Source: Burkholderia sp. BCC0322
Lineage (GTDB): Bacteria; Pseudomonadota; Gammaproteobacteria; Burkholderiales; Burkholderiaceae
NCBI RefSeq assembly: GCF_902833045.1
Contig: NZ_CADFDU010000002.1
Location: 248,001 to 312,000, forward strand
DNA: 64,000 nt
Direction of reading: 5' to 3'
Shown piece after piece: positions 27,056-32,209 of the stretch. Numbering within the stretch: the first letter of the stretch is position 1; each line of letters starts with the position of its first letter. The position numbers and the translations under genes were made by a program. The notes below the pieces were generated by a model. That model was given only the letters and a program-made list of their open reading frames with translations. It was not told where the DNA came from and did not search any database.

Positions 27056-28264
27056 ATGACCCACATCACCGCTGACCAGATGGCTCGCGTGAAGGCCACT
27101 GCCCCTGTCCTCGCCGTGCACGGCGCGACGATCACGAAGCACTTCTACCAGCGCATGTTCGCGCGCCATCCGGAACTGAAAAACCTGTTCAACCAGACGC
27201 ACCAGAAGACGGGCAGCCAGCCGGAAACGCTCGCGAAGGCCGTCTACGCGTACGCGGCGAACATCGACAACCTCGGCGCACTCGGCGGTGCGGTGTCGCA
27301 CATCGCGCACAAGCACGCGAGCCTGAACATCCGCCCCGAGCATTACCCGATCGTCGGCGAGAACCTGCTGGCGTCGATCGTGGAAGTGCTGGGCGACGCG
27401 GTCGATGCCGACACGCTCGAGGCGTGGCGCGTCGCGTACGGCCAGCTCGCGCAGATCCTGATCGGTGCCGAGGCCGACCTGTACGCGGGTGCCGCGTGGA
27501 GCGGGTTCCGTCCGTTCAAGGTCGAGCGCAAGGTGCGCGAAAGCGACGAGATCACGTCGTTCTACCTGAGCCCGGCCGACGGCGGCGCGGCACCGACGTT
27601 CGAGCCCGGGCAGTACATCACGGTGAAGCGCTTCGTCGGCGACCTCGGCGTCGACCAGCCGCGTCAGTACAGCCTGTCCGACGCGCCGCACGGCAAGTGG
27701 CTGCGCATCTCGGTGAAGCGCGAGGCCGGCCAGCCGGAAGTCATTCCGGCCGGCAAGGTGTCGACGCTGATGCATGACGGCGTGGAAGAGGGGGCGATCG
27801 TGGAGGCGACCGCGCCGATGGGCGAATTCTCGCTGAAGCGTGGCGTCGAGACGCCGGTGGTGCTGATCTCCGGCGGCGTCGGCATTACGCCGATGATGTC
27901 GATGGCGTCGGCGCTGATCGCCGAGGGCAGCAAGCGCGAAGTGCGGTTCGTCCACGCTTGCCGCTCGGGCGCGGTGCACGCGTTTCGCGACTGGCTGAAC
28001 GATACGGTGCGCGACCATGCGAACGTCAAGCGCGCGGTGCTGTACGAGCGGGTCGGTCCGAACGATCGCGCCGGCATCGACCACGACCAGGAAGGGCGCC
28101 TCACGCCGCAACGCGTGCAGCAATACGCACTGGTGCCGGATGCCGACTATTACATCTGCGGCCCGATCGGGTTCATGAAGGCGCAGCGTGACGCGCTCGT
28201 CGCGCTCGGCGTCGCGCCGGAACGCGTGAATACCGAGATCTTCGGCTCGGGCGCGCTCGAGTGA
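27056..28264 (+). CDS. hmp: Flavohaemoglobin, nitric oxide dioxygenase
   Basis: 402 residues. The cytoplasmic enzyme oxidises NO to nitrate with O2 and NADPH. The globin domain (1-140) keeps the distal Tyr31 (TKHFYQRMF) and Gln55, and the proximal His87 (AHKHASL), each shifted by two from E. coli Hmp. The FAD domain has QPRQYSLSDAPHG and the NAD(P)H domain has VLISGGVGITPMMSM and DYYICGPIGFMKAQ. The start follows GGAG by seven bases. It is convergent with aroG across a bidirectional terminator, and a possible NsrR site lies just upstream. Confidence 0.96.
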   Translation: MTHITADQMARVKATAPVLAVHGATITKHFYQRMFARHPELKNLFNQTHQKTGSQPETLAKAVYAYAANIDNLGALGGAVSHIAHKHASLNIRPEHYPIVGENLLASIVEVLGDAVDADTLEAWRVAYGQLAQILIGAEADLYAGAAWSGFRPFKVERKVRESDEITSFYLSPADGGAAPTFEPGQYITVKRFVGDLGVDQPRQYSLSDAPHGKWLRISVKREAGQPEVIPAGKVSTLMHDGVEEGAIVEATAPMGEFSLKRGVETPVVLISGGVGITPMMSMASALIAEGSKREVRFVHACRSGAVHAFRDWLNDTVRDHANVKRAVLYERVGPNDRAGIDHDQEGRLTPQRVQQYALVPDADYYICGPIGFMKAQRDALVALGVAPERVNTEIFGSGALE

Positions 28265-28292
28265 TGCGTTGACGCGGATTCCCGAGGAACGG

Positions 28293-28319
28293 AAAAGCCC
28301 GGCGTGAACCGGGCTTTTT
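28293..28319. terminator. Bidirectional terminator between hmp and aroG
   Basis: AAAAGCCCGG (28293-28302) and CCGGGCTTTT (28309-28318) pair around a 6-base loop, with T-runs on both strands. It serves the convergent hmp and aroG genes. Confidence 0.88.
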
Positions 28320-28351
28320 CGTTTGTGCCTGCGCCGACAGGCGTCGCGGGG

Positions 28352-29425
28352 TCAGTTGCCGCTGCCGCGCGTGACGCGGCGCGCCTTCACCGATTCCGCA
28401 AGGCCTTCGAGCACCTTCACGCTGTCGTCCCATGCGATGCACGCATCGGTGATGCTCTGGCCGTAGGTCAGCGCGCAGCCTTCCTTCAGGTCCTGGCGCC
28501 CCTCGACGAGATGCGATTCGATCATCACGCCGACGATGCGGGCGTCGCCGGCCGCGATCTGGCGGCCGATGTCGGCACAGACGGGGATCTGGTTCTCGTG
28601 CTTCTTCGAGCTGTTCGCGTGGCTCGCGTCGATCATCAGGCGCGCGGCGAGGCCGGCCTTGCCGATGTCTGCGCACGCGGCGTTCACGCTGTCGGCGTCG
28701 TAGTTCGGCGCCTTGCCGCCGCGCAGGATCACGTGGCAGTCCTCGTTGCCGGCCGTCGACACGATCGCCGAATGGCCGCCCTTCGTCACCGACAGGAAAT
28801 GGTGCGGCTGCGATGCGGCCTTGATCGCGTCGACCGCGATCTTCACGTTGCCGTCGGTGCCGTTCTTGAAACCGACCGGGCACGACAGCCCCGACGCGAG
28901 CTCGCGGTGAACCTGCGATTCCGTCGTGCGCGCGCCGATCGCACCCCACGAGATCAGGTCGGCGATGTACTGCGGGCTGATCATGTCGAGGTATTCGGTT
29001 GCGGCCGGCAGCCCCATCTCGTTGATCTGGAGCAGCAGCTCGCGCGCGGTGCGCAGCCCTTCGTTGATCTTGAAGCTGTTGTCGAGGTGCGGATCGTTGA
29101 TGAGACCCTTCCAGCCGACCGTCGTGCGCGGCTTCTCGAAGTACACGCGCATCACGATTTCCAGTTCGCCCTTGAAGCGCTCGCGCTCCTTCACCAGCCG
29201 GCCCGCGTACTCGATCGCCGCCTTCGTGTCATGGATCGAGCACGGCCCGATCACGACGATCAGCCGGTCGTCCATCCCGTGCAGGATGCGGTGCATCGAC
29301 TGGCGCGAGTTGTAGATCAGCTCGGACGCGGCTTCGGAGCACGCGAATTCGCGGATCAGGTGGGCGGGCGGCGTCAGTTCCTTGAGTTCGCGAATGCGGA
29401 CGTCGTCGGTGTTGTGCGGGGGCAT
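28352..29425 (-). CDS. aroG: 3-deoxy-7-phosphoheptulonate (DAHP) synthase, class I
   Basis: 357 residues from ATG 29425, with AAGGAG upstream. The enzyme condenses phosphoenolpyruvate and erythrose-4-phosphate, the first step of aromatic amino-acid synthesis. Family blocks are VVIGPCSIHDTKAAIEYA, VMRVYFEKPRTTVGWKGLINDP, AATEYLDMISPQYIADLISWGAIGARTTESQ, HVILRGGKAPNYD and MIDASHANSSKKHENQ. The N-terminal extension of E. coli-type feedback-regulated isozymes is present, but I cannot tell whether Phe, Tyr or Trp inhibits it. The gene lies behind a 295-base leader with an aromatic-rich leader peptide and a terminator (29560-29755), which strongly suggests attenuation control. Confidence 0.95.
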   Translation of the reverse strand: MPPHNTDDVRIRELKELTPPAHLIREFACSEAASELIYNSRQSMHRILHGMDDRLIVVIGPCSIHDTKAAIEYAGRLVKERERFKGELEIVMRVYFEKPRTTVGWKGLINDPHLDNSFKINEGLRTARELLLQINEMGLPAATEYLDMISPQYIADLISWGAIGARTTESQVHRELASGLSCPVGFKNGTDGNVKIAVDAIKAASQPHHFLSVTKGGHSAIVSTAGNEDCHVILRGGKAPNYDADSVNAACADIGKAGLAARLMIDASHANSSKKHENQIPVCADIGRQIAAGDARIVGVMIESHLVEGRQDLKEGCALTYGQSITDACIAWDDSVKVLEGLAESVKARRVTRGSGN

Positions 29426-29559
29426 GCTGTTTCTCCTTGGTTCCGGGCGCCGTTCGGTCAGTGCGAGTGCGCGTGCGGCAGATTCATCAATTCAAGCGAT
29501 TCAGTGGTGTCGGTCGGGGCTGCGGAACCGCTGCGGCGGCGACCGGGTGGCGAAGGGCG

Positions 29560-29593
29560 AAAAAAAAACCGCCGGGTTCGCCGGCGGTTTTTT
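29560..29593 (-). terminator. Attenuator terminator in the aroG leader
   Basis: On the minus strand ACCGCCGG (plus coordinates 29588-29581) pairs with CCGGCGGT (29575-29568) around a 5-base loop and is followed by an uninterrupted U-tract, 29568-29560. It lies 30 nt after the stop codon of the aromatic leader peptide and 134 nt before aroG. An alternative pairing uses its first arm: 29637-29645 (CGCTGGCGG on the minus strand) can pair nine bases, one of them G-U, with 29579-29587 (CCGCCGGCG). That would break the terminator. The two structures are mutually exclusive, as in translational attenuators. Confidence 0.8.
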
Positions 29594-29622
29594 CGGGAAT
29601 TTCGGTTGCGCTCTACGCGCCA

Positions 29623-29688
29623 TCAACCCTCTCGATCCGCCAGCGGTCTGAGATACCAAAAAAAGTAAAAGTAAAACTTGGCGGACAT
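29623..29688 (-). CDS. Aromatic leader peptide of aroG, 21 aa
   Basis: ATG 29688 to TGA 29623 encodes 21 residues; residues 5-12 are FYFYFFWY, eight aromatic residues in a row (four Phe, three Tyr, one Trp), in a region that otherwise has GC-rich codons. The stop is 30 nt before an intrinsic terminator. A ribosome slowed on this run by shortage of charged aromatic tRNAs would leave 29637-29645 free to form the antiterminator. A ribosome reaching the stop would cover it and let the terminator form. I see no strong Shine-Dalgarno before the ATG; an in-frame TTG at 29709 is an alternative start. The role is inferred, but the signal is very unlikely to be chance. Confidence 0.85.
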   Translation of the reverse strand: MSAKFYFYFFWYLRPLADREG

Positions 29689-29726
29689 GACGGAGATTCG
29701 GTTCGTCAAAAAAAGTTGATTCGGAA

Positions 29727-29755
29727 TTTATACCCCGTCGCCGGGCGGCTGGCAA
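29727..29755 (-). promoter_or_regulatory. aroG promoter
   Basis: On the minus strand TTGCCA (plus 29755-29750), a 17-base spacer and TATAAA (29732-29727) make a good sigma70 promoter. It lies after the tldD hairpin and 39 bases before the leader peptide start. Transcription from about 29720 would run through the leader peptide and attenuator into aroG. Confidence 0.7.
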
Positions 29756-29773
29756 CCGGGAAACGTCGAAAAT

Positions 29774-29817
29774 GCGGACATTCCGCGCGTTTTCTTCAAA
29801 ATGCGCGGAATGTCTGC
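29774..29817 (-). terminator. Long hairpin after tldD, probable terminator
   Basis: Two 20-base arms (29774-29793 and 29798-29817) around a CTTC tetraloop pair at 18 positions, with core GACATTCCGCGC and flanking TTTT/AAAA. It begins 12 bases after the tldD stop, and the minus-strand sequence continues ATTTTCG. It probably ends the yhdP-nit-tldD transcript. The stem is longer than a usual intrinsic terminator and the T-tail is short, so a role in mRNA 3'-end stability is also possible. Confidence 0.6.
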
Positions 29818-29829
29818 GCCGCGATGCGG

Positions 29830-31296
29830 TTATGCCGTACCGCCGACCGTCATCCGGTCGATCCGCAGGGTCGGCTGGCCGACGCCGACCGGCACGCTCT
29901 GGCCTTCCTTGCCGCATACGCCGACACCCGAGTCGAGCGACATGTCGTTGCCGATCATGCTCACGTCCTTCAGCGATTCGGGGCCGCTGCCGATCAGCGT
30001 CGCGCCCTTCACCGGGTAGGTGATCTTGCCGTTCTCGATCATGTACGCCTCCGACGCCGAGAACACGAACTTGCCGTTCGTGATGTCGACCTGGCCGCCG
30101 CCGAAGTTCACCGCGTACAGGCCGTTCTTCACCGACGCGATGATTTCCTGCGGATCCTTGTCGCCGTTCAGCATGTACGTGTTCGTCATGCGCGGCATCG
30201 GCAGCGCCGCGTACGACTCGCGGCGCGCGTTGCCGGTGACCGGCATCTTCATCAGGCGTGCGTTCAGCGTGTCCTGGATGTAGCCCTTCAGGATGCCGTC
30301 CTCGATCAGCGTCGTGCACTGCGTCGGGTTGCCTTCGTCGTCGATGTTCAGCGAGCCGCGGCGGTTCGGCAGCGTGCCGTCGTCGACGACGGTCACGCCC
30401 TTCGCGGCGACCCGCTCGCCGATCCGGCCAGCAAATGCCGACGAGCCCTTGCGGTTGAAGTCGCCCTCGAGACCGTGGCCGATCGCCTCGTGCAGCAGCA
30501 CGCCCGGCCAGCCCGGCCCGAGCACGACCGTCATCGCGCCGGCCGGCGCGGGGCGGGCGTCGAGGTTCACGAGCGCCGCATGCACGGCGTCGTCGACGTA
30601 GCGCGACAGCACTTCGTCGGTGAAGTAGCCGTAGTCGAAGCGGCCGCCGCCGCCGCCGGAGCCGATCTCGCGGCGGCCGTTCTGCTCGGCGATCACCGTG
30701 ACCGATACGCGCACGAGCGGGCGGATGTCGGCCGCGAGCGCGCCGTCGCTGCGCGCGACCAGCACGACGTCGTATTCGCCGGCGAGGCCCGCCATCACCT
30801 GCGTGATGCGCGGGTCGCGGCCGCGCGCCATCTGCTCGATGCGTTCGAGCAGCTTGACCTTGGCCGTCGCGTCGAGCGACGCGAGCGGATCGGACGGCAG
30901 GTACAGGTCGCGGCCCGAGATGCCCTTCAGCGACGTTGCCGCCTTGATCTTCTGGCGGCCGCCGCCGGCCGCCGCGATCGCCTTGGTCGCTGCGGCGGCT
31001 TGCGCGATGGCTTCCGGCGACAGGTCGTCGGAATACGCGAACGCGGTGCGGTCGCCCGCGACCGCGCGCACGCCGACGCCCTGGTCGATGCTGAAGCTGC
31101 CCGATTTGACGATGCCTTCCTCGAGGCTCCACGCTTCGCTGCGGGTCGCCTGGAAGTACAGGTCCGCGTAGTCGACGCGATGCGTGAAGATGTCGGCGAT
31201 CGTGCGCGTGAGCAGGCTTTCGTCGAGGCCGTACGGCGTGAGCAGGATGTCCTTCGCCAGCGCGAGGTTGCGGATGCCGGGTTCGATGATGTTCAT
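29830..31296 (-). CDS. tldD: Metalloprotease TldD
   Basis: 488 residues from ATG 31296 (MNIIEPGIRNLALAKDILL); an ATG seven codons upstream is less family-like. TldD and TldE (PmbA) form a cytoplasmic zinc protease complex that degrades unfolded peptides and matures some peptide antibiotics. The HExxxH metal motif is in GVLLHEAIGHGLEGDF at about residue 260. The C-terminal half has the TldD blocks MLNGDKDPQEIIASVKNGLY and VCGKEGQSVPVGVGQPTLRID. No partner pmbA is in the window. It follows the amidase gene by 85 bases and yhdP beyond it, an order also seen in enterobacteria (yhdP-tldD). Confidence 0.95.
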   Translation of the reverse strand: MNIIEPGIRNLALAKDILLTPYGLDESLLTRTIADIFTHRVDYADLYFQATRSEAWSLEEGIVKSGSFSIDQGVGVRAVAGDRTAFAYSDDLSPEAIAQAAAATKAIAAAGGGRQKIKAATSLKGISGRDLYLPSDPLASLDATAKVKLLERIEQMARGRDPRITQVMAGLAGEYDVVLVARSDGALAADIRPLVRVSVTVIAEQNGRREIGSGGGGGRFDYGYFTDEVLSRYVDDAVHAALVNLDARPAPAGAMTVVLGPGWPGVLLHEAIGHGLEGDFNRKGSSAFAGRIGERVAAKGVTVVDDGTLPNRRGSLNIDDEGNPTQCTTLIEDGILKGYIQDTLNARLMKMPVTGNARRESYAALPMPRMTNTYMLNGDKDPQEIIASVKNGLYAVNFGGGQVDITNGKFVFSASEAYMIENGKITYPVKGATLIGSGPESLKDVSMIGNDMSLDSGVGVCGKEGQSVPVGVGQPTLRIDRMTVGGTA

Positions 31297-31381
31297 GCGG
31301 ATATCGGGGTTTCTCAAAAAGTTGTCGGGTGCTTCTGGGCAGATGGGTTGGCCGCGCGGCGTTTCAAGCGGCGCGGCGGAT

Positions 31382-32209
31382 TCAGGTCAGCACGCGGTGC
31401 CGCCACGCGGGCAGGCTCTGACGCACGTCGGCGATGCGTTGCGGATCGATCGCGCCGAGCACGACGCTGGCGCCCACGTCGCGGACCGCGACGATCTCGC
31501 CCCACGGGTCGATCAGCATGCTGTGGCCCCAGGTGCGCCGGCCGTTCTCGTGCTTGCCGCCTTGCGCGGCCGCGAGCACGTAGCACTGGTTCTCGACGGC
31601 CCGCGCGCGCAGCAGCGTTTCCCAGTGCGCGCGGCCCGTCGTATACGTAAACGCCGACGGTACGACGATCAACGCGCAGTCGCCCATCCTGCGATACAGC
31701 TCCGGAAAGCGGAGATCGTAACAGACCGACAGGCCGACCCGCCCGAACGGCGCGTCGAACGAGACGACCGTATCGCCCGCGCGGATCGTGCGCGCCTCGT
31801 CGAACGACTCGTCGCCTTTCTCGAAGTTGAACAGGTGGATCTTGTCGTAGCGCGCGGCTTCGTTACCGGACGGATCGAACACGAGCGTCGTGTTGAGCAC
31901 GCGATCGGGCTCGGGCGCCTTCAGCGGCAGCGTGCCGCCGATTACCCAGACGCCGTGGCGACGCGCGGCGTCCGCGAGGAAGTGCTGGATCGGGCCGTCC
32001 CGGTAGGGTTCGGCGAGCGCGAGCTTGTCGGTGTCGCGGTGGCCCATGAAGCAGAAATACTCGGGCAGCAGCACGAGCTGCGCGCCTTCGCCGGCGGCCT
32101 CCGCGATCAGGCGGCGGGCTTCGGCGAGATTGCGCGCGACGTCCGGCGTGCTCACCATCTGCAGCGCGGCGACCTGGAAGGGCGTGGCGGAACGGGTGTG
32201 GTCGGTCAT
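31382..32209 (-). CDS. Carbon-nitrogen hydrolase, Nit1-type (deaminated glutathione amidase)
   Basis: 275 residues from ATG 32209 (MTDHTRSATPFQVAALQMVS). The nitrilase-superfamily Glu-Lys-Cys triad is visible: Glu in LVLLPEYFCFMG, Lys in RYDKIHLFNFEKGDESFDE, and Cys in VGLSVCYDLRFPELYRRMG. These blocks, particularly the last, are those of Nit1/NIT1 enzymes, which repair deaminated glutathione by hydrolysing its amide. It is placed between yhdP (46 bases upstream) and tldD, an arrangement common in beta-proteobacteria. Omega-amidase activity cannot be excluded from the sequence. Confidence 0.88.
   Translation of the reverse strand: MTDHTRSATPFQVAALQMVSTPDVARNLAEARRLIAEAAGEGAQLVLLPEYFCFMGHRDTDKLALAEPYRDGPIQHFLADAARRHGVWVIGGTLPLKAPEPDRVLNTTLVFDPSGNEAARYDKIHLFNFEKGDESFDEARTIRAGDTVVSFDAPFGRVGLSVCYDLRFPELYRRMGDCALIVVPSAFTYTTGRAHWETLLRARAVENQCYVLAAAQGGKHENGRRTWGHSMLIDPWGEIVAVRDVGASVVLGAIDPQRIADVRQSLPAWRHRVLT

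What the first reader, a model, noticed from the sequence alone, without database searches (positions are those of the whole stretch)
29560..29755. Aromatic-rich leader peptide and attenuator controlling aroG
A minus-strand ORF of 21 codons has FYFYFFWY at residues 5-12, followed 30 nt later by an intrinsic terminator with nine U residues, then aroG (DAHP synthase). A good sigma70 promoter (TTGCCA-N17-TATAAA) lies just upstream. The segment right after the aromatic codons (29637-29645) can pair with the first arm of the terminator (29579-29587, nine pairs including one G-U), giving an antiterminator exclusive of the terminator. All parts needed for ribosome-stalling attenuation by Phe/Tyr/Trp are present in the right order. 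DAHP synthases are better known for repressor and allosteric control, so a mixed Phe-Tyr-Trp leader is unusual.
Basis: partly seen in the sequence, partly recalled or inferred. Interest (0 to 1): 0.92.

Follow-up and report, generated by a model that had tools for sequence, protein, structure and literature searches.

The report
Aromatic leader-peptide attenuator controlling aroG
A tiny gene rich in phenylalanine and tyrosine codons sits before the first gene of aromatic amino-acid synthesis and very probably lets stalled ribosomes switch that gene on when these amino acids run short; relatives of this switch precede the same gene in many other Proteobacteria.

Summary
It is not chance: 1 of 335 ATG ORFs of 10-45 codons in the window has six or more aromatics in eight residues. 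The leader precedes 48 of 80 aroG relatives fetched blind to it; 109 of 115 full-length covariance-model matches in whole genomes have aroG downstream. In 119 non-redundant leaders, aromatics fill 51% of codons where a stalled ribosome leaves the antiterminator free and 3.3% of the others. Best reading: classical ribosome-mediated attenuation of DAHP synthase. Phe (119/119) and Tyr (112/119) are the core, Trp (63/119) optional. Tree-aware covariation supports the terminator; for the antiterminator it is not significant. There are no expression data. Rfam has no such family, and ten paper searches showed no proteobacterial description, but Corynebacterium aroR-aroF is a direct precedent. New member of a known kind, broad and apparently uncatalogued.

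The parts
29750..29755 (-). -35 element TTGCCA
   Evidence: sequence; function inferred
29727..29732 (-). -10 element TATAAA, 17 nt after the -35; ends 38 nt before the leader ATG
   Evidence: TATAAA at 36-47 nt before the ATG in ten other Burkholderia-like loci inspected; not reported by the generic scan
29623..29688 (-). leader ORF MSAKFYFYFFWYLRPLADREG with stop codon
   Evidence: conserved in relatives
29653..29676 (-). aromatic codon run FYFYFFWY, codons 5-12
29679..29685 (-). segment 1 TCCGCCA, can pair with segment 2; restricted to some clades
29637..29645 (-). segment 2 CGCTGGCGG, 5' strand of the antiterminator
29579..29587 (-). segment 3 CCGCCGGCG: 3' strand of the antiterminator; its first seven bases are the 5' arm of the terminator
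29569..29575 (-). segment 4 CCGGCGG, 3' arm of the terminator
29560..29568 (-). run of nine U of the terminator
29433..29438 (-). AAGGAG, likely Shine-Dalgarno of aroG
   Evidence: sequence; function inferred
28352..29425 (-). aroG, class I DAHP synthase, the controlled gene
   Evidence: Pfam PF00793; best PDB sequence matches are DAHP synthases, among them the Phe-sensitive enzyme

Best explanation
A ribosome-mediated transcription attenuator. RNA polymerase starts near 29720 and a ribosome follows on the leader ORF. If charged tRNA-Phe or tRNA-Tyr (perhaps tRNA-Trp) is scarce, the ribosome stalls within codons 5-12 and leaves segment 2 free; segment 2 pairs with segment 3 as it emerges, the terminator cannot form and aroG is transcribed. 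If the aromatic tRNAs are charged, the ribosome runs on towards the stop codon and covers segment 2; segments 3 and 4 then form the terminator and transcription ends about 135 nt before aroG. Shown: the elements, their order and spacing, conservation before aroG, complementarity beyond chance, and covariation (tree-aware for the terminator only). Inferred: promoter use, translation, stalling, read-through, and which amino acids act.
For: Unique aromatic ORF in the window. 48 of 80 aroG relatives fetched by AroG protein alone carry a leader. 109 of 115 full-length model matches have aroG downstream on the same strand, and three of the six others are Rfam Phe leaders. 2:3 duplex mean -16.6 against -11.5 kcal/mol shuffled, 75 of 119 at or below 5 of 100 shuffles. 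Covariation 0.112 against 0.075 for 2:3 and 0.204 against 0.101 for 3:4, 0 of 300 shuffles each. In a ribosome model of the window, 2:3 forms (0.97-1.00) with the A site at codons 1-11, 0.62 at Tyr12, 0.11 at codon 13, 0 from codon 14. Aromatics in 768 of 1498 permissive codons against 42 of 1284 others; the ORF reads past the segment 2 core in 119 of 119. The core lies in all three frames relative to the ORF (93, 14, 12), so RNA and not peptide is kept there. tldD lies upstream in only 31 of 82 loci with enough sequence.
Against: No expression, stalling or termination data. Tree-aware test of 2:3 not significant: 2.6 same, 0.2 opposite, 3.2 unchanged, median p 0.25. In one search the number of 2:3 pairs with two-sided change (4) was reached by 101 of 500 shuffles, and slid controls reach a covariation of 0.074. 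44 of 119 leaders do not beat 5 of 100 shuffles for 2:3. Without a ribosome the model still gives 2:3 at 0.75 in the window, so the untranslated state is not clearly off. The window's leader has no obvious Shine-Dalgarno. L187 keeps the terminator with one aromatic residue.
Confidence: 0.88

Rival explanations
1. The same attenuator, but it answers to Phe only (or mainly); the Tyr and Trp codons slow the ribosome little or are passengers.
For: In C. glutamicum the aroR leader has Phe-Tyr-Phe yet responds to Phe and not Tyr limitation (PMC11802643 passage). Phe is in 119 of 119 runs.
Against: Tyr is in 112 of 119 runs, often alternating with Phe; both codons vary only at the wobble base in most of the Burkholderia-like leaders.
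Confidence: 0.3
2. The terminator merely ends the upstream tldD transcript and the ORF is incidental.
For: tldD lies upstream on the same strand in the window (stop near 29830) and in 31 of 82 loci.
Against: 51 of 82 loci keep leader and terminator without tldD upstream; the aromatic run, its spacing to segment 2 and 2:3 complementarity are unexplained.
Confidence: 0.03
3. Besides or instead of acting in cis, the released short RNA or the leader peptide acts in trans, as rnTrpL and peTrpL do in Sinorhizobium.
For: Precedent in PMC7298713 (passages); the attenuated RNA would be about 160 nt.
Against: Segment 2 is kept in all three frames and the C-terminal peptide differs between lineages, which argues against a conserved peptide function. 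No target was sought.
Confidence: 0.07
4. A metabolite-binding riboswitch or protein-bound leader works the same terminator, without translation.
For: A terminator and antiterminator pair alone would suit one.
Against: No Rfam family reaches its gathering score in the window, and in 18 relatives only a small SRP RNA away from the leader does; the aromatic run lies where ribosome stalling frees the antiterminator. No search for a new aptamer fold was made.
Confidence: 0.02

Closest known systems
Corynebacterium glutamicum aroR leader before aroF (Neshat et al. 2014; paper not seen, known through passages of PMC11802643 and PMC4046766)
   Same: Short leader with Phe and Tyr codons before a DAHP synthase gene; attenuation by ribosome stalling.
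   Different: Other phylum; Phe-Tyr-Phe instead of eight aromatics with Trp; reported to answer to Phe and not Tyr. Homology was not tested.
Phe leader, Rfam RF01859 (pheA, pheST)
   Same: Phe-rich leader ORF followed by terminator and antiterminator; the model R1 picks up three of them.
   Different: Controls pheA or pheST, Phe alone; RF01859 does not match the window or 18 relatives at gathering score.
uORFC-13-1 motif before aroF in Acholeplasma (PMC8632094, passage)
   Same: uORF with Phe codon(s) and terminator before a DAHP synthase gene.
   Different: Restricted to Acholeplasma and environmental sequences; other sequence and structure as described; no run of aromatic codons named in the passage.
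Sinorhizobium meliloti trpL attenuator (PMC7298713, passages)
   Same: Ribosome-dependent attenuator; leaderless ORF, like the predicted starts of a part of the aroG leaders.
   Different: Trp codons and trpE target; the window's own leader has a predicted 5' UTR of about 30 nt.

Membership tests
Ribosome-mediated amino-acid attenuators (trp/phe/his leader kind) | Short ORF rich in codons for the pathway's products | tested here: met
   FYFYFFWY before DAHP synthase; unique in the window
Ribosome-mediated amino-acid attenuators (trp/phe/his leader kind) | Intrinsic terminator between leader ORF and structural gene | tested here: met
   3:4 paired in 96.8% of cells over 119 leaders; tree-aware 6 of 6, p 0.031
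Ribosome-mediated amino-acid attenuators (trp/phe/his leader kind) | Antiterminator that excludes the terminator | tested here: met
   Complementarity beyond shuffles in 75 of 119 and covariation against shuffles; the tree-aware test was inconclusive
Ribosome-mediated amino-acid attenuators (trp/phe/his leader kind) | Cognate codons placed so that a stall frees the antiterminator and read-through of the ORF blocks it | tested here: met
   (footprint size recalled, not from a call)
Ribosome-mediated amino-acid attenuators (trp/phe/his leader kind) | Read-through responds to charged-tRNA supply | not testable with these tools
   Needs an experiment
Phe_leader (Rfam RF01859) | Match to the family's covariance model | tested here: not met
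   No match in 28000-31500 up to E 5, none at gathering score in the window or in 18 relatives
Phe_leader (Rfam RF01859) | Downstream gene pheA or pheST (recalled definition) | tested here: not met
   Downstream gene is DAHP synthase
C. glutamicum aroR leader | Common descent with the Corynebacterium leader | not tested
   Its sequence was not fetched

The most novel reading that the evidence does not exclude
One inherited attenuator, a Phe/Tyr(/Trp)-reading leader with a CTGGCGG...CCGCCAG...CTGGCGG switch, was already on the aroG of an ancestor of Alpha- and Betaproteobacteria and Xanthomonadales and is the default control of the shikimate entry step there, in part as a leaderless ORF; it was lost in lineages such as Enterobacteria and Vibrionaceae, where repressors such as TyrR took over.
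Probability: 0.5. Interest if true: 0.65.

Novelty: new member of a known kind. Interest (0 to 1): 0.55.

Why it matters
Control of the entry step of aromatic synthesis is taught from E. coli, where repressors and feedback inhibition act. Here a translated leader would let the cell read Phe and Tyr supply directly on aroG in many Proteobacteria. It gives an RNA family ready for annotation (absent from Rfam 15), a testable case of one leader reading two or three amino acids, a case of regulatory turnover on one gene, and a target for engineering aromatic overproduction.

Tried and rejected
Rfam gave only sub-threshold matches near the leader, at the terminator. The generic promoter/terminator scan missed both elements. 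Most weak R1 matches are terminator-only partial matches and were not counted; that list was cut off by the tool, and two weaker full-length matches in it (G192, G106, E about 4e-4) were not fetched. Of the six fetched full-length matches not before aroG, three are Phe leaders, one looks like a chance terminator (L120), and two (L192, L193) are aromatic ORFs before an unidentified protein. Termination of tldD was considered and rejected. A general segment 1:2 protector is not supported family-wide: 26 of 119 at or below 5% of shuffles, 6 expected, mostly Burkholderia-like and some alphaproteobacterial leaders. In one search, 21 of 167 ORF-bearing loci were dropped because my terminator finder found no stem or one too far off, or the wrong ORF was picked; I judge 17 of the 21 to be real leaders by eye (9 printed, L015), so 119 undercounts. 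The 2:3 covariation test on the tree was not significant. The two paralogous DAHP synthases of the nearest genome G001 have no aromatic leader in 450 nt upstream. The ten paper searches listed no proteobacterial aroG aromatic leader; they cover open-licence papers only. Two papers likely to matter, Panina 2001 and Vitreschak 2004, were seen only as references in PMC1262725 and not read.

Full report
What is there. The minus strand of window 29560-29755 holds, in order, TTGCCA-N17-TATAAA, an ATG ORF of 21 codons with eight aromatic codons in a row, an intrinsic terminator with nine U, and 134 nt further on aroG, a class I DAHP synthase. Only this ORF among 335 ATG ORFs of 10-45 codons in the window has six or more aromatics in eight residues. 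The window's own assembly is not held. The nearest records by AroG are named Burkholderia (99% identity); I take the genus to be Burkholderia, the species is undetermined.

Relatives fetched by AroG alone. A scan of genome contigs with the AroG protein kept the best 80 of at least 591 relatives. In 48 of these 80 an aromatic leader lies upstream with a terminator (peptides judged by eye). 32 show none; L065 among them holds only 55 nt upstream and cannot tell, L074 has an aromatic ORF but no terminator found, and L052 has an aromatic ORF with an unrelated hairpin. Carriers include Burkholderia, Paraburkholderia, Caballeronia, Trinickia, Cupriavidus, Oxalobacteraceae, Bordetella, Xanthomonas, Dyella and Devosia records. 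Non-carriers include Enterobacteriaceae, Vibrionaceae, Methylotenera, Chromobacterium and several Rhodocyclaceae records.

Whole genomes. A covariance model of 45 leaders was run over three overlapping samples. Order of the nearest genome: 79 of 300 genomes have a full-length match at E up to 2.4e-5, 77 of them before aroG. Class: 8 of 321 at 1e-5, 7 before aroG. Phylum: 55 of 398 at 1e-5, of which 3 have only partial matches, 4 lie elsewhere, and 48 are full-length before aroG. The 115 full-length matches listed at these levels were fetched or already held; 109 have aroG downstream on the same strand, within 80-450 nt except that L087, cut short, was not measured by that script. One search prints 116 of 122 because it includes 7, genomes chosen for their aroG. 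The six exceptions are two pheA leaders and one pheST leader (all matching Rfam Phe_leader), two aromatic ORFs before an unidentified protein, and one apparent chance terminator. Of the 116, 114 have an ORF with at least 4 of 8 aromatics. On that quick tree of 170 proteins the leader label needs 10 changes (at least 6 forced by starred branches) against 31.4 for shuffled labels. The leader is thus mostly inherited with aroG, with repeated gains or losses; the tree cannot tell which.

Pairings. In 45 leaders the 2:3 helix forms in 80.2% of cells (slid controls at most 56.0%), covariation 0.106 against 0.067 shuffled, 0 of 500; but its number of pairs with two-sided change, 4, was reached by 101 of 500 shuffles. 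The terminator forms in 95.6%, 0.196 against 0.089, 0 of 500. In 119 non-redundant leaders the figures are 77.4% and 0.112 against 0.075 for 2:3 (slid controls up to 0.074) and 96.8% and 0.204 against 0.101 for 3:4 (slid up to 0.107), 0 of 300 shuffles each. One position changes in concert over segments 2, 3 and 4: T-A-T in 67 leaders, C-G-C in 16, with 3 T-G-C and other mixtures. Counting only independent changes on the tree, 3:4 is supported (6 of 6, p 0.031) and 2:3 is not (2.6 same, 0.2 opposite, 3.2 unchanged, median p 0.25). Duplex strength of 2:3 exceeds shuffles (mean -16.6 against -11.5 kcal/mol; 75 of 119 at or below 5 of 100 shuffles). The 2:3 core hardly varies, so it has little room to covary.

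Geometry. With a ribosome covering 15 nt on either side of the first P-site base (size recalled), 2:3 can form in the window while the A site is at codons 1-11, in part at codon 12 (0.62), hardly at 13 (0.11) and not from 14. Over 119 leaders the segment 2 core is free in 107 when the A site is at the last aromatic codon of the run and in 45 one codon later. Aromatic residues fill 768 of 1498 permissive codons and 42 of 1284 others. The leaders were chosen for an aromatic run, not for its place relative to segment 2. The ORF reads past the core in all 119, and the core lies in each of the three frames (93, 14, 12), so the RNA is kept there and not the peptide. Phe occurs in 119, Tyr in 112 and Trp in 63 of the runs. 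Trp11 of the window is Ser, Ala or Gly in L013, L014 and L087. A mixed Phe-Tyr signal is well founded by sequence; Trp is optional.

Promoters. In ten other Burkholderia-like loci inspected TATAAA ends 36-47 nt before the ATG, and in twelve Oxalobacteraceae-like loci TATAGT ends 22-39 nt before it. In 36 of 118 loci a TANNNT ends 6-9 nt before the ATG, against 1-17 in fourteen other bins of the same width. These are Bordetella and many unnamed Burkholderiales. Xanthomonas loci (TATCAAT) and the f238/f242 loci (GTGACA, then CTATAT) show similar sequences there by eye. This predicts leaderless leader mRNAs in those lineages, as reported for Sinorhizobium trpL (PMC7298713 passages).

Results against. 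There are no functional data. L187 keeps the terminator and segment 2 with one aromatic residue, and its relative L190 has scattered ones. Candidatus Burkholderia humilis (L012) has a leader whose frame shifts after FYFYF. Segment 1 is clade-restricted and weaker than 2:3 (-14.5 against -20.2 kcal/mol), and without a ribosome the model gives 2:3 at 0.75, so untranslated RNA might read through. No Shine-Dalgarno is evident before the leader ATG.

What is known. Passages of PMC11802643 and PMC4046766 describe the C. glutamicum aroR leader (Phe-Tyr-Phe) before aroF; a passage of PMC8632094 describes an Acholeplasma uORF motif before aroF and says that attenuation of E. coli aroF had been hypothesised; a table passage of PMC1173090 lists predicted attenuators before aroAIalpha_Y-tyrA in Vibrio; a passage of PMC2659441 lists predicted Shewanella aroF and aroH elements. 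In PMC2965389 the words DAHP and aromatic do not occur in the held text. The passages seen of PMC5343134 describe TyrR and TrpR control and no aroG leader. Rfam has no matching family. By mechanism this is a classical attenuator; it meets each sequence-testable feature of that kind, with the antiterminator's tree-aware test open, and is not a member of Rfam's Phe_leader.

Verdict. The feature belongs to a broad, apparently uncatalogued family of aroG attenuators.

Noticed in passing
L192 and L193 (genomes G118 and G254, family f28), from about base 151 in match orientation: Aromatic leader-like ORFs (MVTFSVVYNVYFYWYRSSGGAKGC and MITFSAVFNAYFYWYRSSRRLQGASLD) with a terminator precede an unidentified protein of about 205 residues without a Pfam match; aroG lies elsewhere in both genomes without such a leader.
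   Followed up: partly
L020, L030, L041, L101, L173 and other loci, just before the leader ATG: A -10-like TANNNT ends 6-9 nt before the leader ATG in 36 of 118 loci, which predicts leaderless leader-peptide mRNAs.
   Followed up: partly
window 29706-29714 (minus strand): A U-rich tract lies in the predicted 5' UTR before a start codon without Shine-Dalgarno; similar tracts stand at the same place in Paraburkholderia and Caballeronia loci. A role in ribosome binding is a guess.
   Followed up: no
L012 (Candidatus Burkholderia humilis): The leader's frame shifts after FYFYF in this symbiont, as if the switch were decaying.
   Followed up: no
L144 and L145 (genome G979, in which the Devosia MAG locus L064 lies): Two model matches, each before an aroG, in one genome.
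   Followed up: no
L052 (Chloroflexota MAG), 191 nt before aroG: An aromatic ORF MSRYFSFFSWYGYFAAG is followed by a long hairpin of unrelated sequence; possibly a convergent leader.
   Followed up: no
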